This document shows positions 51,446 through 62,612 of a stretch of 64,000 nucleotides of DNA, piece after piece. The stretch comes from Longimicrobium sp. Lineage in GTDB: Bacteria; Gemmatimonadota; Gemmatimonadetes; Longimicrobiales; Longimicrobiaceae. Each line of letters starts with the position of its first letter. The stretch's first letter is position 1. The DNA lies in assembly GCF_035474595.1 (NCBI RefSeq), contig NZ_DATIND010000047.1:1-64000 (forward strand), given 5' to 3'. A program made the translations under genes and the position numbers. The notes below the pieces were generated by a model. That model made no database searches, was not told the DNA's origin, and worked only from the letters and a program-made list of their open reading frames with translations.

Positions 51446-52024
51446 ATGTCCATCTCGCCTGGAAGCCGCTGGATCGCCGCGTCGGCGGCCGTGCTCGCCC
51501 TCGCCTGCGCCGCGCGGCCCGCGTCGGCGCAGCGCGACCTGTACGGCATGGGCGGCTCGTCGGCCGGCGACGCGCGCCGCCAGTTCATCGCCGAGGCGCG
51601 CGAGAAGGTGGGCGCGCTGCTGGCCGAGTACGAGTCCGCGTGGGGAAGCCGCGACCTGCGCGCGCTGTCCGGCCTCTACGCCGGCAACGCCACGGTCTAC
51701 CCGGCCGAGGGCGGAATGCTGACCGGCCGCGACGCCGTGCGCGAGCACTTCGCGCGGCTGCTGCCGAACGCCGAGCCGCTGCGCACGCAGATCGTGGAGT
51801 TCAAGGCGGCGGGCGACCTGGCCTTCGCCACGGTGCAGGTGAGCTACGCGGTGAAGGAGGGCGCGGCGGACCGCCCGTACCTGGGCACCGACGTGGTCGT
51901 CCTGCGCCGCGACTGGGCGGGCGACTGGACCATCGTCACCCAGTTCTCGCGGCAGGAGCCGGGGGCGATGGCCAACACGCCGCGCGCGACGGCGGCGACG
52001 TCGGATTCAGCAGGGTCGCAGTAG
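51446..52024 (+). CDS. Secreted NTF2-like (SnoaL/DUF4440-type) protein
   Basis: 192 aa with a signal peptide (AASAAVLALACAARPASA-QR). The NTF2-like cone fold is recognisable: VGALLAEYESAWGSRDLRALSGLYAGNATVYPAEGGMLTGRDAVREHFARLL, later WTIVTQFSRQEPG. It may be an enzyme or a small-molecule binder; nothing specific can be said. The C-terminus is Ala/Thr/Ser-rich. An octamer array begins right at its stop codon. Confidence 0.82.
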   Translation: MSISPGSRWIAASAAVLALACAARPASAQRDLYGMGGSSAGDARRQFIAEAREKVGALLAEYESAWGSRDLRALSGLYAGNATVYPAEGGMLTGRDAVREHFARLLPNAEPLRTQIVEFKAAGDLAFATVQVSYAVKEGAADRPYLGTDVVVLRRDWAGDWTIVTQFSRQEPGAMANTPRATAATSDSAGSQ

Positions 52025-52215: not shown

Positions 52216-52746
52216 ATGGAGAGGATGATGGATCACGGAACGACCCTCGGCCTGTTCGACGAAGAGGTAGCGGACGATGCACATCTCTCCGGGCGTGTCG
52301 AGGAGATCTGGATCGCCGCAGGGGCGCGCGGGACGCCGCGGGCGCGGGTGGAGAGCGTGCGCGCCGTCGCGGGGATGGGGCTGGAGGGCGACCGCAACTT
52401 CGGGCGCAGGGCGGCGCCGTCCGCGAAGTACCGCCCCGAGCGGCAGGTGACGCTGATCGAGGCCGAGGCGATCGACGCCGTGCGCGCCACCGGCCGCGAC
52501 TTCGGCGCCGCGGACGCGCGCCGCAACGTGGTCACCCGCGGCGTGCGGCTGAACGCGCTGGTCGGCCGCACCTTCCGCGTGGGCGGCGTGGTCCTGCGCG
52601 GCATCGAGCGCTGCGACCCGTGCACGCACCTGGGCCGCCTCACCTGGCGCGGCGTCGTCCGCGACCTGCACGAGCGCGGCGGCCTGCGCGCCGAGATCCT
52701 CCAGGGCGGCACCATCAACACCGGCGACGAGCTGGCGCCGGTCTGA
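52216..52746 (+). CDS. MOSC-domain protein
   Basis: 176 aa, a stand-alone MOSC domain (the C-terminal domain of molybdenum-cofactor sulfurases). Typical features are VAGMGLEGDRNFGRRA, RQVTLIEAEAIDAV, RRNVVTRGVRLNALVGRTFRVG, and the conserved Cys in GIERCDPCTHL. MOSC proteins handle sulfur or activated molybdenum cofactor. A functional link to the sulfurase-like enzyme at 20730 is possible but not shown by position. Octamer arrays and element C copies bracket the gene symmetrically. Confidence 0.9.
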   Translation: MERMMDHGTTLGLFDEEVADDAHLSGRVEEIWIAAGARGTPRARVESVRAVAGMGLEGDRNFGRRAAPSAKYRPERQVTLIEAEAIDAVRATGRDFGAADARRNVVTRGVRLNALVGRTFRVGGVVLRGIERCDPCTHLGRLTWRGVVRDLHERGGLRAEILQGGTINTGDELAPV

Positions 52747-53094: not shown

Positions 53095-54264
53095 ATGGCC
53101 AGGGACAACCACGAGGGGGCCGAGCCGGTGATTCCGCCCGGCGAGTCCGAAACGCTGCTCGCCCCCGCGGCCGGCGGCCCGTACGCCGCGCCGCAGCCGG
53201 GGGGCGCCATCCGCATGCCGCCGCGCGGAAAGGGCCCCAGGCGCACGGTGCTGGAGCGCATCTTCGAGGCGCGCAGCCGCCCGTACCTGCGGCTGGCCGT
53301 GTACTACGTCCTGCTGATCGCGATCATGGCGTCGCTCGTGTACTTCGTGCCCGCCATCCGCGACGCGCTGGTGGCGCCCACGCTGCTGCCGCCGCGCGAG
53401 GGCGGGCTGATGACCGCCGGCCCCATCACCGCCGAGCTGGGGCGCAAGCTGTCGCTGGACGAGGCGCTGCACCGCATCCTCACCACACTGCTGGTGATCG
53501 CCGGGGCGCTGCTGCTGGTGGTGCCGGTGGCCTGGGTGTACATGCTGACCAAGCGCTTCCGCTACGACCCGGCGCTGGTGGCCTCGGTCATCATCCTGCC
53601 CATCGTGGTGGCCGGCACCTCGATGGTGGTGAAGAACTCGCTGGCGCTGGCCTTCTCGCTGGCCGGGATCGTGGCCGCGGTGCGCTTCCGCAACACGCTG
53701 AAGGACCCGCGCGACGCCGTCTACATCTTCCTGGTCATCGCCATCGGCCTGTCGGCGGGGGTGCAGGCGCTGGACGTGGCGCTGGCCATCTCCATCGCCT
53801 TCAACTTCGTGGTGCTGACCGTCTGGAAGTTCAACGTGGGCTCCATCTACAGCGGCAGCTTCGGGCGCACGGGGGTGCTGTCGGTGGGCGACCCCGCGCT
53901 GCTGGTGGCCGAGGAGCCGTCGCAGCAGCGGGCGGTGCGGCGGCGCATGCTGGCCGCCGACGGCGACATGCGCACCGACGGCGTGCTGCTGGTGCACAGC
54001 TCCGAGCCCGACACCGCGCGCAACACCGTGCAGGAGGCGCTGGCCGACCTGGCGCGCGACTGGCGCCTGGTGGATGTGGTGCCGCGCGGCACCGTGCACA
54101 CGCTGGAATACCTCGTGCGCATGAAGAAGGGGATCACCCCGCCGGACCTGGTGGGCGCGCTGGACGAGCGCTGGAGCGTGCAGGTGGAGGCCGCCGAGTT
54201 CTTTCCCATGCGTACCCGCCAGCGCAAGCGCACCAAGAACAGCGGCAAGCGCGGCAAGGACTGA
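53095..54264 (+). CDS. DUF4956-domain membrane protein
   Basis: 389 aa. The N-terminus is polar (about 60 residues) and is followed by membrane helices at about 69-90, 128-151, 160-182, 186-200 and 207-245. The core LALAFSLAGIVAAVRFRNTLKDPRDAVYIFLVIAIGLSAGVQ is the DUF4956 signature. A cytoplasmic alpha/beta domain follows (about 290-375) with a Lys/Arg-rich end. From general knowledge, DUF4956 genes are often found beside VTC-type polyphosphate polymerases and CotH-like kinases. Here they precede a phosphoesterase, a kinase-like barrel and a polyphosphate kinase, so a role in an envelope phosphate system is a reasonable inference. Confidence 0.88.
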   Translation: MARDNHEGAEPVIPPGESETLLAPAAGGPYAAPQPGGAIRMPPRGKGPRRTVLERIFEARSRPYLRLAVYYVLLIAIMASLVYFVPAIRDALVAPTLLPPREGGLMTAGPITAELGRKLSLDEALHRILTTLLVIAGALLLVVPVAWVYMLTKRFRYDPALVASVIILPIVVAGTSMVVKNSLALAFSLAGIVAAVRFRNTLKDPRDAVYIFLVIAIGLSAGVQALDVALAISIAFNFVVLTVWKFNVGSIYSGSFGRTGVLSVGDPALLVAEEPSQQRAVRRRMLAADGDMRTDGVLLVHSSEPDTARNTVQEALADLARDWRLVDVVPRGTVHTLEYLVRMKKGITPPDLVGALDERWSVQVEAAEFFPMRTRQRKRTKNSGKRGKD

Positions 54265-54443
54265 TGGGGAGATGGAGGAGGCCGCGCGCCGCCGCGTGAA
54301 TCCGTGGCGGCACGCGACTCTCGTGTGAACGGATGGCGCGAGGACGCGGGGACGCGGGATGCGCCGCCATCGGCGGGGTCCGGCGATGGCGGCGGGTGCG
54401 TCCGCGAGTCCGGGCCGATACGGTCGGAAGAACGACAACGGGG

Positions 54444-55796
54444 ATGGAGATGAGGGAGGCGAGACGTGCGCTGGCCGCCGCGTTCCTGTGCGCGGCGGTG
54501 CTGATGATGGCCGGGTGCTTCCGCTACGTGAAGGGGCTCGGGCGGCTGATCCCCAACGTGGCCGAGACCGACACGGTGGAGCTGCGCCTGGTGCTGGTGG
54601 GCGACGCGGGGCTTCCCGCGCCCGGCGGCGAGCCGGTGATGAAGGCGCTGCGCACCGAGCTGTCGTACGACCCCAAGCACTCGTTCGTGGTGTTCCTGGG
54701 CGACAACGTGTATCCGCGCGGGATGGTGCTGGACAGCACCGCCGCCGAGCGGCGCGAGAACGAGCGCATCATCAACGACCAGCTGGCGCCGCTGATCTCG
54801 CAGGGCGTGCACGGGATCATGATCCCCGGCAACCACGACTGGGCCACCGGCACCGCCGGCGGGCTGGAGGCGGTGCGCACGCAGGCGCGCTACGTGAACG
54901 CGCACGGCCGCGGGCTGGTGCAGTTCCTTCCCGCCGACGGCTGCCCCGGCCCCGTTTCGCTGGACTTCGGCAACTACCTGCGCCTCATCATCCTCGACAC
55001 CCAGTGGTGGCTGCAGGAGGGCTTTCCGCGCCCGTTCGGCGCCACCAGCGAGTGCCGGGCCAGGACCGAGGAGGAGATCGTGGACTCGCTGCGCGCCGAC
55101 CTGGGCTCGGCGGGGCAGCGGCGCACCGTGGTCGTCAGCCATCATCCCCTGGTCTCCGGCGGGCAGCACGGCGGCTACTTCGACTGGCCCACCTACCTCT
55201 TCCCCTTCCACCCGTGGGCGCGGCAGGCGGGCGCCTTCGCGCGGCAGGACGTGAGCGGGCGCGAGTACCGCACCATGATCACCGCGCTCTCGCGCGCCTA
55301 CCAGCCCAACGCGCCGCTGGTGCACGCGGCCGGGCACGAGCACAACCTGCAGCTGCTGCGCGGCGTGGGGGCCAAGTACCAGGTGGTGAGCGGCGCGGGG
55401 ATCTACAACCACACCACGCAGACGCGCGCCATTTCCGGGACCCTGTACGCGCGGCGGGTGAGCGGGTGGGTGACGATGGCCTTCCTGCGCGACGGCCGGG
55501 TGCGCATGGCGTACCGCATCGTGAACCCCGACGGCACCTTCCGCGAGGACTACTCGATGTGGCTGGACGTGCCGCCGCTGGTGCCCGAGTCGCAGGGCGC
55601 GCCCACCACGCCGCACGCGGCCGAGAACTCCGGGCCCACCACGCCCACGCCGGCGGGGCAGGTGCCGCGCCCCGCGCCGGTGGCGCCGGCCGCGCCGCCG
55701 CCGGCCCCGGTGGCCCCGTCGTCGCCCACGCCCGTCACCACGCCTCCACCCCGGCCGGCGCCCCCACCGCCGCCCCCCGCGGGAGCCCGTCCGTGA
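54444..55796 (+). CDS. Calcineurin-like metallophosphoesterase lipoprotein
   Basis: 450 aa. The signal with lipobox LMMAGC (Cys near residue 25) predicts a lipid-anchored periplasmic or outer-membrane protein. All five metallophosphoesterase motifs are present: GDAG, FLGDNVY, GNHDW, VSHHPL and AGHEHN, so it should be an active two-metal enzyme. The C-terminal 60 residues are a Pro/Ala/Thr-rich linker. Its stop overlaps the GTG start of the barrel gene by 4 bp, so the two are made together. In some other phyla a similar phosphoesterase and barrel appear, as I recall, as one fused protein. Alternative start ATG 54450. Confidence 0.9.
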   Translation: MEMREARRALAAAFLCAAVLMMAGCFRYVKGLGRLIPNVAETDTVELRLVLVGDAGLPAPGGEPVMKALRTELSYDPKHSFVVFLGDNVYPRGMVLDSTAAERRENERIINDQLAPLISQGVHGIMIPGNHDWATGTAGGLEAVRTQARYVNAHGRGLVQFLPADGCPGPVSLDFGNYLRLIILDTQWWLQEGFPRPFGATSECRARTEEEIVDSLRADLGSAGQRRTVVVSHHPLVSGGQHGGYFDWPTYLFPFHPWARQAGAFARQDVSGREYRTMITALSRAYQPNAPLVHAAGHEHNLQLLRGVGAKYQVVSGAGIYNHTTQTRAISGTLYARRVSGWVTMAFLRDGRVRMAYRIVNPDGTFREDYSMWLDVPPLVPESQGAPTTPHAAENSGPTTPTPAGQVPRPAPVAPAAPPPAPVAPSSPTPVTTPPPRPAPPPPPPAGARP

Positions 55797-58354
55797 TTCA
55801 TCGCTCCACCGCGTACGCCGTTCTCGCCGCCGCGTGGCTCGCCGGGCCCGCGGCGCTCGCTTCGCAGCGCTCTTCCGACACCGTCGTGGCCGCGGGGCCG
55901 CGCTACCGGGCCGGCGGGGTGCACCGCTGGCTGCTGGGCTCCACCTGGCGCGACCTGTGGACCGCGCCCGCCACCATCCCCGTGCTGGACCTGGGGACGT
56001 ACGCGGGCGGGCTGACGCCCACCGAGACGGGGGGCGGGCTGCAGACGCACTCGCTGCGCTTCCGCGCGGACAACGGGCGCGAGTACGCCTTCCGCTCGGC
56101 CGACAAGGACCAGACGCAGTCGCTCCACCCCGATCTCCGCGGGCGGACGCTGACCGCGTGGGTGGTGCAGGACCAGGTCTCGTCCCTCGTCCCCGCCGCC
56201 GGCGTGGCCGCGCACCGGGTGGAGGCGGCGGCCGGGGTGCCGCACACCACCGAGGAATTGTTCGTGATGCCCGACGACCCGCGCCTGGGCGAGTTCCGCC
56301 GGCAGTTCGCGGGGATGGTGGGCACCATGGAGGAGCGGCCGGCCGCCGGGCGCACGGGGGTGCACGCGCTGGCCGGCGCGGACCGGATCGTGGAGACGGA
56401 GGAGTTCCTGGACTCGCTGCAGAGCGGGCACGGCGAGCGCCTGGACGACCGCGGCTACCTGGCCGTCCGCCTGGTCGACATCCTGCTGGGCGACTGGGAC
56501 CGGCACGGCGGGCAGTACCTGTGGGCGCGCTTTCCGCAGGCCGGCGGGGGGCATCTCTGGCGCGTGCTGCCGCGCGACCGCGACTACGCCTTCGTGGACT
56601 ACGACGGGCTGGGGCCGCGCATCGCCCACGGCTTCATCCCCAACGTCATCCACTACCGCGGCACCATCGACCTGCGCCCCTTGCTGCTGAACGCGTCGCA
56701 GCTGGACCACCGGCTGCTGGGCGCCATCCCCCGCACCGCGTGGGACTCGGTGACGGCGGCGGTGCGCGCGGAGCTGACCGACGCCGAGATCGACGCGGCG
56801 GTGGGCGCCCTGCCCGCGGCCTGGCGCCAGCGTGAGGGCGCGCGGCTGTCGCGCACGCTGAAGGAGCGGCGCGACGACCTGCCGCGCGTATCCGCCAGCT
56901 TCTACCACATCATCGCCCGCGAGCCCGAGGCGCACGCGACGGATCTGGCCGACGCGGCGGTCGTCGAGCGGCAGCCGGACGGGAACGTGTGGGTCACCCT
57001 CACCCCGGCGGGCGGCGGTGAGCCCATCTACCGGCGCTGGTTCAACTGGTGGGACACGCGCGAGGTCCGCGTCTACCTGCACGGCGGCGGCGACGTCGCC
57101 CGGGTGACGGGGACGGGGCCCGAGCAGGTGATCGTGCGGGTGATCGGCGGCGGGGGCGACGACGACCTGCGCGATGAGGGGCGCGCGGGGCACCGCACCG
57201 CCTTCTACGACTCGGAGGGCGACAACCGCTACACGCGGCGCGACCACACCAAGGTCGACGAGAGTCCGTGGGAGCCGAAGCTGTGGGTGCCGGGCGGCGG
57301 CTCGCTTCCGCCGCGCGAGTGGGGGACCTCGGGGGGGCTGCTGACGCCGGCGTTCGGGTGGCGCCCGGCGTCGGTGGGGCCGTACGTGGGGATCGGGCCG
57401 TCGTGGACGCGCTACGGCTTCCGCCGCCAGCCGTACGCCACCAAGCAGCAGGTGCGCTTCATGTGGGCGGTGCAGCACGCCCGCTTCGGCGCCGAGTACC
57501 TGGGCGACTTCCGCTACGTGGGCCGGCCTGAGGACATGACGCTGGTGCTGGCGCGCGTCTCGGAGATGGAGGCCAGCCGCTTCCACGGCTTCGGCAACGA
57601 CACCGGCGGCGAGGGCGAGACCAGCTCGCACTTCCGCGTCTTCGAGCACCAGCTGATGGGGAACGCGGCGTACTGGCGCGGCGTCGGGCGGCGCGCGTGG
57701 GTGGTGGGCGAGATCACCGGCCGCTTCACCGACCCCGAGCCCCGGGCGGGAACGCCGGCCGGCGACCTGCACCCGCGCGGGTCCGACGACTTCGCCATCG
57801 TGGGCGGACGGCTCGGCCTGGTGCTCGACCGGGCCGACACCACCGCGTATCCGCGCCGCGGGTGGAAGCTGGAGACGTGGGGGACGGGGTTCCCCATCGC
57901 CTTCCACGACGCCACGGCCTTCGGGCGGGCGCGGGCGGTGGGGATCACCTACCTCTCCGCGAGGGAGCTCGGGCCCACGCTGGCGCTGCGCGCGGGCGGC
58001 GAGCGGGTGTGGGGGGGATTCCCCTTCCAGTACGCGGCCTTCCTGGGCGGCGGGGGGACCATCCGCGGCTACCAGTCCGAGCGCTACCAGGGCGACGCCT
58101 CGGCCTTCGGCACGGCCGAGCTGCGGCAGGTGGTCACCCGCGCCAACCTCCTGGTCGCGCGCGGCGAGCTGGGGGTGCTGGCGCTGGCCGACGCGGGGCG
58201 GGTGTGGTACGGCGGCGCGTCGCCCGGCGACTGGCACACCGCGTACGGCGGCGGGCTCTTCTTCGCCTTCATGGACCGGCGCCGCGCCGTCACCGTGACG
58301 TACGCCCACGGCGAGCGCAACACGGTGTACGCCGGCTTCGGGCTCCCGTTCTGA
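55793..58354 (+). CDS. Outer-membrane Omp85/BamA-type barrel with kinase-like N-terminal region
   Basis: 853 aa. A signal peptide (AAWLAGPAALA-SQ) is followed by a 400-residue soluble region. It has three blocks arranged like a CotH/Fam20-type kinase: a Lys-bearing strand LRFRADNGREYAFRSADKD (Lys105), GDWDRHGGQYLW (Asp234-His238), and LPRDRDYAF (Asp262, Asp264). The C-terminal half (about 480-853) is a 16-strand-type barrel with the Omp85 motif GGGGTIRGYQSERYQGDASAFGTAELR and a final aromatic residue. No POTRA repeats are recognisable. The GTG start overlaps the upstream phosphoesterase stop (GTGA), and the polyphosphate kinase gene begins 14 nt downstream. I infer a surface or periplasm-facing phosphotransfer function; whether it is catalytically active is not known. 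Confidence 0.85.
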   Translation: MIHRSTAYAVLAAAWLAGPAALASQRSSDTVVAAGPRYRAGGVHRWLLGSTWRDLWTAPATIPVLDLGTYAGGLTPTETGGGLQTHSLRFRADNGREYAFRSADKDQTQSLHPDLRGRTLTAWVVQDQVSSLVPAAGVAAHRVEAAAGVPHTTEELFVMPDDPRLGEFRRQFAGMVGTMEERPAAGRTGVHALAGADRIVETEEFLDSLQSGHGERLDDRGYLAVRLVDILLGDWDRHGGQYLWARFPQAGGGHLWRVLPRDRDYAFVDYDGLGPRIAHGFIPNVIHYRGTIDLRPLLLNASQLDHRLLGAIPRTAWDSVTAAVRAELTDAEIDAAVGALPAAWRQREGARLSRTLKERRDDLPRVSASFYHIIAREPEAHATDLADAAVVERQPDGNVWVTLTPAGGGEPIYRRWFNWWDTREVRVYLHGGGDVARVTGTGPEQVIVRVIGGGGDDDLRDEGRAGHRTAFYDSEGDNRYTRRDHTKVDESPWEPKLWVPGGGSLPPREWGTSGGLLTPAFGWRPASVGPYVGIGPSWTRYGFRRQPYATKQQVRFMWAVQHARFGAEYLGDFRYVGRPEDMTLVLARVSEMEASRFHGFGNDTGGEGETSSHFRVFEHQLMGNAAYWRGVGRRAWVVGEITGRFTDPEPRAGTPAGDLHPRGSDDFAIVGGRLGLVLDRADTTAYPRRGWKLETWGTGFPIAFHDATAFGRARAVGITYLSARELGPTLALRAGGERVWGGFPFQYAAFLGGGGTIRGYQSERYQGDASAFGTAELRQVVTRANLLVARGELGVLALADAGRVWYGGASPGDWHTAYGGGLFFAFMDRRRAVTVTYAHGERNTVYAGFGLPF

Positions 58355-58368
58355 CGCGGCGCCAGGAG

Positions 58369-61300
58369 ATGGCGAGCGCCCCGCGCCGTTTCACCGGCCC
58401 TTCCCCGCGGCCGCGCTTCCCCGCCGGATGGGCCCGCGGCGGCGAGCTGGTCGTCCGCTTCGCCGCGCCCGGCCGCGACGCGCTGGACCGCATCGCCGGG
58501 GGCCCGCTCCCGGCGGGGATCGCGGCGGAATCCCCATCCACCGAGCTGTTCCGCGACGTCTACTACGACACGCCGGAGCTGGACCTGCGCCGCCGCGGGG
58601 CCACCGCCGGCGTGCGCTTTCACCCCTCGGGCGAGCTGACGCTGGCGGTGGAGGTGCGCGGATCGGAGGACGCGCTCCCCCGGAGCGCCGCCGAGAGCGC
58701 GCCCGCCGCGGACGCCGCGGCGCTCTTCGCGGCCGAGAGCGAGCCCGCCCGCCTGCTCCGCGCGCTGATCGACCCCGCGCACCTGGACCCCTGGCTGGAG
58801 GTGGAGACGCGCCGCCGCGTCCGCCTGGCCGCCGCTCCCTCCGCGGAGGGGGACGAGGGGCTGGAGATGGAGATCGCCTGCGACGAGCGGACGGTGCGCG
58901 ACCGCGACGTCACCGCCGAGCTGTTCGAGGTGGAGGTCCGGCTGGCGGAGGACACCGCCGAGGGGCGCGCCGCCGCCCGCGCGCTGGAGACGGAGTTCGG
59001 CCTCACCCTGCTCACGGGCGACCCGCTCCGCCGCTGGTCCCGCAGCCTGGAGGAGACCGAGGTCGACTGGCTGGAAGAGGCCGTCCGCTCCTCGCGCCGC
59101 GTGGCCGTGCTGGCCTACCAGGGCGGCCGGGTGGCGCTGCTGAACCGCGACGGCTCGCTGCAGGTGCCGGCCGGGCCGGGAACCGGGCTGCAGGCCGCGC
59201 GCCGCGTGCTGGACGAGGTGCTGAACGCCAGCGGCCGCCTGCGCCTGGCGGGCACCGGCCCCGGCTCCGCGCGCCACCCGGCGACGGAGGTCTGGCTCGC
59301 GGAAGAGCTGGCGTACGCGCCGGGAACGGAGGGGATGGTGCACGTGGCGGTCGACGAGCTGATCGAGGCCGCCGGCTCGCCCGCGGTGCGCGACCCGGCC
59401 ACCCTCTCGGCGCTGCACGTGCTGGCGCGCTCGGGCGTGGCCGCGCACCCCGTCTCGGGCGACTGGGCGGCGGAGACGGACGCGCTGGACCCGCTCCACG
59501 CCGCCCCGCCGTACGCGCCGCCGCCGGGCGCCTTCGACGAGAGCAGCCTTCCGCCGGGCACGCTGCTGAACCCCGAGCTCAGCGTGCTGGCCTTCAACCG
59601 CCGCGTGCTGGAGCTGGCGGGCGACCGCGCGGTGCCGCTGCTGGAGCGGGTGCGCTTCCTCTCCATCTTCGGCGGCAACCTGGACGAGTTCTTCCGCGTG
59701 CGCGTGGCCGGGTACAAGCGGCAGGTGGCGCAGGGGTCCGAGAAGCCGGGGATGGACGGCGTTCCCCCGCGCGCGCAGCTCGACGCCATCGGCACCCGCG
59801 CGCGGCGGCTGGCCGACTCGGCGTACCGCCTGCTCTTCGACACGCTGATGCCGGAGCTGCGCGAGCGCGGGATCGACGTGGTGCGGCGCAGCGGCCTGGA
59901 CCGCGACGAGCGGGCGTGGCTGCGCGACTACTACGACGCCGAGGTCCACCCGCTGCTCACGCCGCTGGCCGCCGGGCCGGGGCACCCGTTCCCGCACATT
60001 CGCAACCAGCGTCCGGCGCTGGTCGCCATCCTCCGCGAGCCGCTGACGGGCGGGGAACGGCTGGGCGTGGTCGAGCTGCCGGACGGCCTCCCGCGCTTCG
60101 TCTCCCCCGGCGGCGGGCGGTACGTGCCGCTGGAGACGGTCATCATCGAGAACCTCCACCGCCTGTATCCGGGGATGGAGGTGGACAGCGCCTCCACCTT
60201 CCGCGTCACCCGCAGCGCCGAGCTGCAGCTGGAGCCGGGGCGCCTGGCCGACCTGCTGCAGGCGGTGGAGGAAGAGGTGCGCCGCCGCCGCTTCCGCCCC
60301 GTGGTCCGCGTGGAGGTGGAGGATTCCATCCCGGGCCGCCTGCGCGAAACGCTGCTGCGCGAGCTGCGGCACGAGGCGCCCGACCGCGCCTGGCCGCTGG
60401 GCGACGAGGACGTGTACGAGGTGGAGGGGTTGATTGACCTGCGCGGCCTGCGCGAGCTGGCGTCGCTGGAGATCGCGGACGCGCACTGGCCGCCCGAGGA
60501 AACGCACGAGCGGCTGGACCCCGGCGTCCCCATCGCCGACGTGCTGCGCGAGCGCGAGGTGCTGGTGGAGTTCCCGCGCGACTCGTTCGAGGCCACCGTC
60601 GAGCGCTTCGTGCTGGAGGCGGCGGAGGACCCGGACGTCGTCGCGATCAAGCTGGCCCTCTACCGCACCAACCGGAAGTCGCGGATCGTGGAGGCGCTGC
60701 GCCGCGCCAGCTCGCGCGGCAAGCAGGTGGTGGCGCTGGTGGAGCTGACCGCGCGCTTCGACGAGGAGCGCAACATCGAGTGGGCGCGCTACCTTCGCTC
60801 CTCCGGCATCCACGTGGTCTACGGCCTCCCCGGGCTGAAGGTGCACGCCAAGGTGGCGCTCGTCGTGCGCCGCGAATCGGGCGGGGTGCGGCGCTACGCG
60901 TACGTGGGGACGGGGAACCTGAACGCCACCACGGCCGCCGCGTACACCGACCTGGGCCTGCTGACGGCGGACCCCGGGATCACGGAAGAGATCTCCGAGC
61001 TCTTCAACATGCTCACCGGCGCCGGGGGCGAGCCGCACCACCGCCTTCTCCTCGTCGCCCCACGGACGATGCGCACGCGGTTCGTGGAGATGATCGACCG
61101 CGAGACCGAGCACGCGCGCGCCGGCCGCGGCGGCCACGTCATCGCCAAGGTGAACGGGCTGGCGGACCTGGAGCTGATCGCCGCGCTCTACCGCGCGTCG
61201 CGCGCCGGGGTGCGCGTCGACCTGATCGTGCGCGGGCTGTGCGCGCTGCGCCCCGGCGTGGCGGAGGTGTCGGAGACCATCCGCGTGGTCAGCATCCTGG

Positions 61301-61599
61301 GCCGCTACCTGGAGCACGCGCGCATCTTCCGCTTCGCCAACGGCGGCGATCCGGAGTACTACATCGGGTCGGCGGACTGGCGCACGCGCAACCTGAGCCG
61401 GCGCGTGGAGGTGGCCGCTCCGGTCCGCGCCCCCGCGCACCGCGCGCGGCTGGACGAGATCCTGCGCGCGCAGCTGGAGCACCCGCGCGCCTGGGAGCTG
61501 GGCGCCGACGGCACGTACTACCAGCGCCCGGCCATGGCCCCCCGCCAGGCGCGGGTGCCGCCGCCCGACCCCGATCGCCGCGCGATCATCACGGGATAA
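58369..61599 (+). CDS. ppk1: Three-domain protein: CYTH-like, Nudix-like, polyphosphate kinase 1
   Basis: 1,076 aa, against about 690 for ordinary PPK1. Residues about 25-220 look like a CYTH (triphosphate tunnel) domain: GGELVVRF in place of ExExK, RDVYYDTPELDLRRRG (62-77), LEVETRRRVRL, and FEVEVRLAEDTAEGRAAARALETEFGL. Residues about 240-365 look like a degenerate Nudix domain: VAVLAYQGGRVALL, a weak PAGPGTGLQAARRVLDEVLNASG box, VHVAVDELIEAAGSPAVRDPATLSALHVLA. PPK1 starts near residue 400 (LNPELSVLAFNRRVLELAG) and is complete, with autophosphorylated His826 in KVHAKVALVVRRE. It makes polyphosphate from ATP; the added domains may bind or trim polyphosphate or nucleotides. The AGGAG lies right at the ATG, so the exact start is uncertain. 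Confidence 0.88.
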   Translation: MASAPRRFTGPSPRPRFPAGWARGGELVVRFAAPGRDALDRIAGGPLPAGIAAESPSTELFRDVYYDTPELDLRRRGATAGVRFHPSGELTLAVEVRGSEDALPRSAAESAPAADAAALFAAESEPARLLRALIDPAHLDPWLEVETRRRVRLAAAPSAEGDEGLEMEIACDERTVRDRDVTAELFEVEVRLAEDTAEGRAAARALETEFGLTLLTGDPLRRWSRSLEETEVDWLEEAVRSSRRVAVLAYQGGRVALLNRDGSLQVPAGPGTGLQAARRVLDEVLNASGRLRLAGTGPGSARHPATEVWLAEELAYAPGTEGMVHVAVDELIEAAGSPAVRDPATLSALHVLARSGVAAHPVSGDWAAETDALDPLHAAPPYAPPPGAFDESSLPPGTLLNPELSVLAFNRRVLELAGDRAVPLLERVRFLSIFGGNLDEFFRVRVAGYKRQVAQGSEKPGMDGVPPRAQLDAIGTRARRLADSAYRLLFDTLMPELRERGIDVVRRSGLDRDERAWLRDYYDAEVHPLLTPLAAGPGHPFPHIRNQRPALVAILREPLTGGERLGVVELPDGLPRFVSPGGGRYVPLETVIIENLHRLYPGMEVDSASTFRVTRSAELQLEPGRLADLLQAVEEEVRRRRFRPVVRVEVEDSIPGRLRETLLRELRHEAPDRAWPLGDEDVYEVEGLIDLRGLRELASLEIADAHWPPEETHERLDPGVPIADVLREREVLVEFPRDSFEATVERFVLEAAEDPDVVAIKLALYRTNRKSRIVEALRRASSRGKQVVALVELTARFDEERNIEWARYLRSSGIHVVYGLPGLKVHAKVALVVRRESGGVRRYAYVGTGNLNATTAAAYTDLGLLTADPGITEEISELFNMLTGAGGEPHHRLLLVAPRTMRTRFVEMIDRETEHARAGRGGHVIAKVNGLADLELIAALYRASRAGVRVDLIVRGLCALRPGVAEVSETIRVVSILGRYLEHARIFRFANGGDPEYYIGSADWRTRNLSRRVEVAAPVRAPAHRARLDEILRAQLEHPRAWELGADGTYYQRPAMAPRQARVPPPDPDRRAIITG

Positions 61600-61700
61600 A
61601 CCGATGGGCACAACGAGGGAGATGGAGATCACGGGGGAAGATTCGTCCTCCCGTGTTCTCGATCCTTCCTCGCTGAGAGCCTGAAAGAAGGGTAGGGGAG

Positions 61701-62612
61701 ATGGAGATTCCAATCGGCCGCCGGCCCGCGCTCGCCCTCGTGGCCGCCGTTCTGGCGGGATGCGCCCGCGGCGACGCGGGGGAGGCGAAGGCGCCGGAGG
61801 TGGCCTGCGCGGTGGTGGAGAAGGGGATCACCCTGCCCGAGGAGCTGCGCGAGAGCAGCGGCATCGTGGCCAGCCGCAGGCACGCGGGGGTGTACTGGTC
61901 GCACAACGACTCCGGGCGCCACCCCGACCTCTTTGCCGTGGGGCTGGACGGCCAGCTGCTGGGGAAGATGACGGTCACCGGGGCGCAGAACAACGACTGG
62001 GAGGACATCGCCCTGGGCCCGTGCCCCGGGGGCGGCGGCGACTGCCTGTACCTGGCCGACACGGGGAACAACGGCAAGAAGCGCAGGCACGTCACCCTCT
62101 GGGTCTTTCCCGAGCCCGTGCCCGGCGACGGGGCCACGGCGCCCGCGCGCGAGTTCAAGGCGCGCTTCCCGGGCGATCCCACCGACATCGAGGCCCTCGC
62201 GGTGCTTCCCGACGGGCGCGTGCTGCTGGTCAGCAAGGGGAACAACGACGTGGTGGAGCTCATCCGCTGGCCCACGCCGCTGCAGGCCGGGATCGAGCCC
62301 ACGCTGGAGCCGCTGCGCCAGCTCGCCCCCGAGCCCACCGAGCTGGGCGACCGCGTGACCGGTGCCAGCGCCTCGCCCGACGGGCGGTTCGTGGCGGTGC
62401 GGACGTACGCCGCGCTGGCCATCTACCGCACGGCCGGCCTGCTGGGCACCGGCACCCCCATCGCGCAGCTGGACCTGGATCCGCTGGCCGAGACGCAGGG
62501 CGAGGCGGTGTCGCTGGCCAACGATGGCTCGGTGGTGCTCACCAGCGAGGGCCCCGGCAGCAAGCACCTGCCCGGCACCATCTCCCGCCTCCGCTGCGCG
62601 CTACCGCGGTAG
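61701..62612 (+). CDS. Secreted lipoprotein, beta-propeller-like
   Basis: 303 aa. The lipobox is VLAGC (Cys near residue 21), then an SGIVASRRHAGVYWSHNDSGRHPDLFAV repeat. Further repeats of the same form follow (DWEDIALGPC... CLYLADTGNNGKKRRHVTLWVF, DIEALAVLPDGRVLLVSKG, GASASPDGRFVAVRTY). This suggests a propeller fold like SdiA-regulated or esterase-like phytase proteins, the latter being phosphate-releasing enzymes. Its exact activity cannot be stated. It is the last gene of the phosphate-related run, 101 bp after ppk1, and a stem-loop (62637-62668) follows. Confidence 0.78.
   Translation: MEIPIGRRPALALVAAVLAGCARGDAGEAKAPEVACAVVEKGITLPEELRESSGIVASRRHAGVYWSHNDSGRHPDLFAVGLDGQLLGKMTVTGAQNNDWEDIALGPCPGGGGDCLYLADTGNNGKKRRHVTLWVFPEPVPGDGATAPAREFKARFPGDPTDIEALAVLPDGRVLLVSKGNNDVVELIRWPTPLQAGIEPTLEPLRQLAPEPTELGDRVTGASASPDGRFVAVRTYAALAIYRTAGLLGTGTPIAQLDLDPLAETQGEAVSLANDGSVVLTSEGPGSKHLPGTISRLRCALPR

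What the first reader, a model, noticed from the sequence alone, without database searches (positions are those of the whole stretch)
53095..62612. Candidate envelope polyphosphate/phosphotransfer system of five adjacent genes
The order is DUF4956 membrane protein, phosphoesterase lipoprotein, kinase-like Omp85 barrel, CYTH-Nudix-PPK1 and a propeller-like lipoprotein, all on one strand. The middle two overlap by 4 bp and the next gap is 14 nt. VTC polymerase, DUF4956 and CotH kinase are known neighbours in other bacteria. Here PPK1 with a CYTH domain replaces VTC, and the kinase-like part sits on an outer-membrane barrel. This would link cytoplasmic polyphosphate synthesis to phosphate chemistry at the cell surface.
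Basis: partly seen in the sequence, partly recalled or inferred. Interest (0 to 1): 0.85.

Follow-up and report, generated by a model that had tools for sequence, protein, structure and literature searches.

The report
Outer-membrane kinase linked to polyphosphate synthesis
A soil-type bacterium keeps together genes for making polyphosphate, an exported kinase-shaped domain built onto an outer-membrane barrel, and a lipid-anchored phosphatase; versions of this set recur across several phyla, which suggests a little-known phosphate-transfer system at the cell surface.

Summary
Five same-strand genes at 53095-62612 encode DUF4956, a metallophosphoesterase lipoprotein (MPE), a kinase-fold domain on an Omp85 barrel (KIN-Omp85), CYTH/Nudix-like-PPK1 and a propeller lipoprotein. 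The 4-bp overlap and 14-nt gap are exact.

The kinase part models confidently (pLDDT 94.5). It matches PI4KII (Z 16), Bacillus CotH kinase (Z 15) and Fam20C/HipA, with its putative catalytic residues kept in 132 homologues. The rest is a true Omp85 barrel (Z 25).

The neighbourhood is not local. In Gemmatimonadota, 25 of 36 genomes carrying both have DUF4956 within 5 kb of KIN-Omp85. In Bacteroidota, MPE, kinase and barrel are usually one fused protein. PPK1 and a homologous propeller lipoprotein recur beside it in Ignavibacteria and some Bacteroidota. The window's PPK1 belongs to a locus-bound paralogue clade; the genome has a canonical PPK1 elsewhere. Most KIN-less DUF4956 loci examined carry a secreted CotH-like kinase instead.

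Corrections: the CYTH and Nudix-like parts lack their catalytic motifs, so PPK1, not CYTH, is the polymerase. DUF4956 is absent from 10 of 16 non-Gemmatimonadota genomes with KIN-Omp85. PPK1 adjacency is not universal.

PolyP export, donor, substrate and side of the membrane are inference.

The parts
53095..54264 (+). DUF4956 inner-membrane protein, 389 aa: several hydrophobic segments at about residues 67-248, then a soluble C-terminal part
   Evidence: PF16316 42.2 bits, over cut-off; hydropathy
54444..55796 (+). MPE: calcineurin-like metallophosphoesterase lipoprotein (start may be 54333 or 54450)
   Evidence: PF00149; GDxG, GDNxY, GNHDW, HHP and GHxH motifs kept in 56-60 of 60 homologues; lipobox MMAG/C
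55793..58354 (+). KIN-Omp85: signal peptide, kinase-fold domain, beta domain, Omp85 barrel (853 aa)
55874..56947 (+). KIN domain (residues 28-385), CotH/PI4KII/Fam20C/HipA-like kinase fold; K105, D127, D229, R237, D262, D264 invariant in 132 homologues, D234 and Q241 nearly so, D236 in 121
56930..57262 (+). all-beta linker domain (about residues 380-490) with GGxGDDxL-type acidic turns
   Evidence: model; alignment
57320..58351 (+). Omp85 beta-barrel (residues 510-853), with the RGY loop motif at R758
   Evidence: Z 25 to Sam50, Z 24.6 to TamA; NF047779 E 3.5e-16; R758 invariant in 42 sequences
58369..61599 (+). CYTH / Nudix-like / PPK1 fusion, 1076 aa
58447..58977 (+). CYTH (TTM-fold) domain, ExExK not conserved in the family: probably not a polymerase or triphosphatase
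   Evidence: PF01928 29.9 bits; alignment of 16 homologues; motif definition from PMC8233210
58984..59553 (+). Nudix-like segment without an intact Nudix box; no Pfam hit
59560..61533 (+). PPK1 core; both histidine motifs (VHAK, LEHARIF) kept; locus-bound paralogue clade
61701..62612 (+). propeller lipoprotein, phytase-like; homologous to the SdiA-regulated-family lipoproteins of other KIN-Omp85 loci
   Evidence: PF13449 below cut-off; hhalign prob 96%, E 2e-9; lipobox VLAG/C

Best explanation
The five genes are one module that couples polyphosphate (polyP) made by a dedicated PPK1 paralogue to phosphate transfer in the outer envelope. Proposed working: CYTH/Nudix-like-PPK1 makes polyP in the cytoplasm; its degenerate CYTH and Nudix-like parts bind phosphate ligands and regulate or tether it. 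DUF4956 sits beside it in the inner membrane and senses or passes polyP. KIN-Omp85, secreted and anchored in the outer membrane by its barrel, is an exported CotH-like kinase that phosphorylates an envelope substrate (protein or glycan). The lipoprotein MPE is its counter-enzyme. The propeller lipoprotein binds the substrate or the barrel. Shown: gene set, conservation, Bacteroidota fusion of MPE with KIN-Omp85, kinase fold with conserved putative catalytic residues, Omp85 barrel, PPK1 paralogue clade, exchange with CotH-like kinases beside DUF4956. Inferred: activity, substrate, phosphate donor, polyP passage, side of the membrane.
For: Conserved company in shuffled gene orders: 25 of 36 Gemmatimonadota genomes with KIN and DUF4956 have them within 5 kb, 21 of 28 for MPE, 13 of 18 for CYTH-PPK1 (loci). 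Rosetta-stone fusion MPE-KIN-Omp85, about 1250 aa, in Bacteroidota. PPK1 beside KIN-Omp85 in Ignavibacteria, Hymenobacteraceae and Cyclobacteriaceae. Kinase fold Z 15-16 to PI4KII and CotH, putative catalytic residues kept in 132 sequences. DUF4956 pairs with a CotH-like secreted kinase when KIN-Omp85 is missing and with VTC and CotH at the VTC locus read in full. Locus-bound PPK1 clade, support 100/99, separate from the canonical PPK1 that this genome also has. In Streptococcus intermedius, deleting DUF4956-type SIR_1592 or CotH-type SIR_1594, neighbours of a polyP polymerase gene, lowers Pel and aggregation (PMC12345266).
Against: No activity, transcript or localisation data. DUF4956 is missing in most Bacteroidota and Ignavibacteria genomes tested, so the kinase/phosphatase core can work without it. 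In an even sample of the phylum of G150, PPK1 is within 5 kb of KIN-Omp85 in only 4 of 51 genomes, and MPE is absent near many loci. KIN has no significant sequence match to CotH. Periplasm and cell surface lack ATP by general knowledge, so the donor is unexplained.
Confidence: 0.5

Rival explanations
1. Phosphate scavenging and storage: MPE and the phytase-like propeller release phosphate from organic phosphates at the outer membrane, KIN-Omp85 is a binding or uptake protein whose kinase fold is no longer used as a kinase, and PPK1 stores the phosphate as polyP.
For: MPE motifs intact; phytase-like resemblance of the lipoprotein; PPK1, SixA and a PAP2 phosphatase gene near KIN-Omp85 in other phyla.
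Against: Lys/Asp residues at kinase-like positions kept in 132 sequences speak for catalysis; KIN-Omp85 exchanges places with CotH-like kinases beside DUF4956; no Pho-box-like repeat above chance in the window (a weak test).
Confidence: 0.22
2. A secretion device like the patatin-type type Vd system: the Omp85 barrel carries the kinase (and in Bacteroidota the phosphatase) to the outside as a released or displayed effector, and the polyP genes are neighbours only by regulation.
For: An enzyme domain N-terminal to an Omp85 barrel is the layout of PlpD-type secretion (own knowledge); signal peptide and barrel in one chain; stand-alone KIN proteins of about 540 aa exist in Hymenobacteraceae.
Against: Linkage to PPK1 or DUF4956 in several lineages is not explained; the family is common in free-living bacteria.
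Confidence: 0.15
3. The KIN domain is a small-molecule, lipid or glycan kinase (PI4KII or lipid A/LPS type) that decorates the outer membrane; polyP is only the energy supply or a stress signal.
For: The best structural matches are PI4KII lipid kinases (Z 16.2), tied with CotH; the VTC-DUF4956-CotH cluster of G148 lies among flippase and glycosyltransferase genes.
Against: Z values of PI4KII and CotH differ by under 1, so the fold does not decide; no glycan or lipid genes in the five-gene set.
Confidence: 0.1
4. Chance neighbours inherited together, with no joint function.
For: The genes are shuffled, and several loci lack one or more of them.
Against: Adjacency far above the fraction of a genome expected by chance; gene fusion; 4-bp overlap.
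Confidence: 0.03

Closest known systems
VTC polyphosphate polymerase / DUF4956 / CotH kinase clusters (e.g. S. intermedius SIR_1592-1594 in the Pel locus; accessory genes of Gram-positive pel clusters)
   Same: DUF4956 beside a polyP-making enzyme and an exported CotH-fold kinase (PMC12345266, PMC7112168; L174 of this phylum)
   Different: Polymerase is a PPK1 paralogue, not VTC; the kinase is fused to an Omp85 barrel; MPE and propeller lipoproteins are added; no exopolysaccharide genes among the five
CotH / Fam20C / HipA / PI4KII atypical kinases
   Same: Fold (Z 11-16), Lys and Asp residues at kinase-like positions
   Different: No Pfam or PDB sequence match worth the name; carried on an outer-membrane barrel
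Omp85 superfamily, in particular patatin-type type Vd proteins (PlpD) with an N-terminal enzyme
   Same: Omp85 barrel with loop motif, N-terminal exported enzyme domain
   Different: Kinase fold instead of patatin; an all-beta domain where POTRA would be; in Bacteroidota a phosphatase in front
PPK1 polyphosphate kinase
   Same: Four PPK1 domains, both histidine motifs
   Different: N-terminal CYTH and Nudix-like extension, own clade, second copy beside a canonical PPK1

Membership tests
VTC/DUF4956/CotH polyP module | DUF4956 membrane protein | tested here: met
   PF16316 42.2 bits
VTC/DUF4956/CotH polyP module | VTC-type polyP polymerase (PF09359) | tested here: not met
   no VTC match in the window's genome; 3 of 150 genomes of the phylum have one
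VTC/DUF4956/CotH polyP module | CotH-family kinase (PF08757) by sequence | tested here: not met
   no hit for the window protein; 2 of 72 homologues weakly, best E 0.0017
CotH-like atypical kinase fold | fold | tested here: met
   5jd9 Z 15.4 over 254 residues, rmsd 4.0
CotH-like atypical kinase fold | conserved Lys and Asp residues at kinase-like positions | tested here: met
   K105, D127, D229, D262, D264 in 132 of 132; D236 in 121. Roles assigned by motif, not by superposition
CotH-like atypical kinase fold | phosphotransfer activity | not testable with these tools
   needs biochemistry
Omp85 superfamily | Omp85 barrel with loop motif | tested here: met
   Z 25; R758 invariant
Omp85 superfamily | POTRA domains before the barrel | tested here: inconclusive
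   an all-beta domain 380-490 precedes the barrel in the model; not compared alone
PPK1 | N, middle, C1, C2 domains and catalytic histidines | tested here: met
CYTH (TTM) enzymes | ExExK motif | tested here: not met
   not conserved in 16 homologues; motif as defined in PMC8233210
Nudix hydrolases | Pfam match and Nudix box GX5EX7REUXEEXGU | tested here: not met
   no Pfam hit; only G/E/R remnants
Calcineurin-like phosphoesterases | metal-binding motifs | tested here: met
   GDxG, GDNxY, GNHDW, HHP, GHxH in 56-60 of 60

The most novel reading that the evidence does not exclude
PolyP made by the dedicated PPK1 is passed across the inner membrane by DUF4956 and serves, in place of ATP, as the phosphate donor (or is itself the group transferred) for an outer-membrane-anchored kinase, so that bacteria phosphorylate their own surface with polyP.
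Probability: 0.18. Interest if true: 0.92.

Novelty: new variant of a known kind. Interest (0 to 1): 0.73.

Why it matters
How extracytoplasmic kinases of Gram-negative bacteria obtain phosphate where there is no ATP is an open question, and no function is agreed for DUF4956. A conserved set that joins a polyP synthase to an outer-membrane kinase and phosphatase, in cultured genera such as Pontibacter and Hymenobacter, makes both testable. The KIN domain has no Pfam family although it is on a barrel in about a third of the genomes sampled from two phyla.

Tried and rejected
CYTH as a replacement polymerase: rejected, catalytic motif missing. VTC nearby in the same genome: none. Coincidence: rejected by conservation and fusion. 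Sequence proof that KIN is CotH: failed; profile comparison of KIN with the CotH-like proteins not significant, although the two motif regions line up. Full-length fold search only returned barrels, so the domain was modelled alone. Pho-box search: nothing above chance. Terminators or promoters between the genes: 2 terminator-like sites against 1.8 expected, none in the gaps between the five genes; no sigma-70-like site, uninformative for this phylum. The Riemerella metallophosphoesterase was considered as a studied relative, but its paper is not held, so relatedness is untested. Linkage at about 13 kb in 12 Bacteroidota genomes has other genes in between in the one locus read out (scpA-like and ftsY-like by eye) and was not counted as adjacency.
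Full report
What is there. The overlap of 4 bp and the gap of 14 nt are correct. Pfam confirms DUF4956, Metallophos, CYTH and all four PPK1 domains; it gives no family for the kinase-like part, no Nudix hit, and only a sub-threshold phytase-like hit for the last lipoprotein.

The middle protein. A full-length AlphaFold model from 42 relatives has pLDDT 89. Residues 510-853 are an Omp85 barrel (Sam50 Z 25.2, TamA Z 24.6). Residues 28-385 modelled alone from 72 relatives reach pLDDT 94.5 and match PI4KII (Z 16.2), Bacillus cereus CotH kinase (Z 15.4 over 254 residues), CtkA (14.5), Golgi casein kinase (11.9) and HipA (11.7). PI4KII and CotH are tied. In 132 homologues K105, D127, D229, R237, D262 and D264 are invariant, D234 and Q241 nearly so, D236 present in 121; the motifs GDWDRHxDQW and PIPRDRD look like the catalytic loop and the DFG-equivalent. 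Assignment of roles is by motif, not by superposition. So 'kinase-like' is right, by fold and conserved residues, not by sequence family.

Conservation. In 150 genomes of the phylum, 52 match the protein (the weakest matches are barrel only). Counting positions, 25 of 36 genomes with KIN and DUF4956 have them within 5 kb, 21 of 28 for MPE, 13 of 18 for CYTH-Nudix-like. By my estimate a random pair would be that close in well under 1% of genomes, and many contigs end inside the locus. Gene order is shuffled while the set stays. A scan of named genomes found the kinase domain in Gemmatimonadota, Ignavibacteria, Chlorobi and many Bacteroidota (single MAG contigs labelled Deltaproteobacteria and Actinobacteria may be mis-binned; only the best 80 of 594 were kept). 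In 31 of 37 barrel-bearing Bacteroidota loci MPE, KIN and Omp85 are one protein of about 1250 aa, a fusion that links the phosphatase and the kinase directly. PPK1 lies next to KIN-Omp85 in 7 of 11 Ignavibacteria loci and 12 of 37 Bacteroidota loci in that set, usually with SixA. In an even sample of the phylum of G150 (which includes Ignavibacteria-like genomes) KIN-Omp85 is in 51 of 148 genomes, and PPK1 is within 5 kb in 4 of them: real, but not general. A propeller lipoprotein of the SdiA-regulated family sits beside KIN-Omp85 in many loci of four groups and is homologous to the window's last gene (hhalign probability 96%, E 2e-9).

DUF4956 and its kinases. DUF4956 is in 79 of 150 genomes, VTC in only 3, each time directly beside a DUF4956. 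One of these, L174, was read in full: VTC, DUF4956, a TPR protein and a 1059-aa protein that looks CotH-like by eye, among flippase and glycosyltransferase genes; the same genome (G148) also has the KIN-Omp85 locus. Of 20 further DUF4956 regions chosen mainly because KIN was not near, 15 have a secreted protein of about 340 aa at the DUF4956 gene, two of ten of which match Pfam CotH (best E 1.5e-6). So in this phylum DUF4956 travels with an exported CotH-like kinase, which is either a small secreted protein or KIN-Omp85. This is the best argument that KIN-Omp85 plays the CotH part. In S. intermedius the corresponding genes SIR_1592 (TM plus ACT domain) and SIR_1594 (CotH) are needed for normal Pel-dependent aggregation, and SIR_1593 between them has a polyP polymerase domain (PMC12345266); the same accessory set is described for Gram-positive pel clusters (PMC7112168).

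The polymerase. The genome has two PPK1 genes, a canonical one on contig C83 and this one. In a tree of 42 PPK1 cores, those bound to this locus form one clade of 18 (support 100/99) apart from the canonical PPK1s of the phylum. The N-terminal CYTH domain lacks the ExExK hallmark in the family, and the following segment lacks an intact Nudix box (motif per PMC8233210), while the PPK1 histidine motifs are intact. CYTH proteins without ExExK are known (plant TTM1/2, which use pyrophosphate, same paper), so a role in phosphate-ligand binding is plausible.

Mechanism and limits. The most economical reading is an envelope phosphotransfer module tied to polyP: synthesis by the PPK1 paralogue, DUF4956 at the inner membrane, an outer-membrane kinase, a phosphatase and a propeller lipoprotein. 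Shown are the gene set, the fold, the conservation, the fusion and the paralogue clade. Not shown are activity, donor, substrate, polyP passage, co-transcription and whether the kinase faces the periplasm or the outside. The absence of DUF4956 in 10 of 16 other genomes with KIN-Omp85 means the kinase/phosphatase core can exist without it. Literature searches for Omp85 with CotH kinase or polyphosphate kinase, and for a CYTH-Nudix-PPK1 fusion, found no description of this protein or module in the held library; subscription papers are largely missing from it, so prior description cannot be excluded.

Noticed in passing
L084:13952-15166, L183, L184 and about 30 further Bacteroidota/Ignavibacteria loci: An HD-domain protein with a C-terminal PycTM domain (PF18967, 'Pycsar effector') recurs beside PPK1, SixA and KIN-Omp85; an adenylate/guanylate cyclase gene is close in 11 loci.
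   Followed up: partly
L124, L125, L131-L133, L138, L139, L146, L149: Pairs of stand-alone KIN proteins (about 540 aa, no barrel), divergently arranged, in Hymenobacter and relatives.
   Followed up: no
L033 (G000 contig C135, 1597-4104): A second KIN-Omp85 (44% identical) in the window's own genome, on a 4.8-kb contig, so its neighbours cannot be seen.
   Followed up: partly
L174 (G148 contig C18): A VTC-DUF4956-TPR-CotH-like cluster within a polysaccharide locus, in a genome that also has the KIN-Omp85 locus.
   Followed up: partly
L184:9589-10707: Another protein that looks CotH-like by eye lies two genes from the propeller and KIN-Omp85 genes.
   Followed up: no
window 52216-52746 and 51446-52024: MOSC-domain and SnoaL-like genes upstream on the same strand; they do not travel with the module.
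   Followed up: partly
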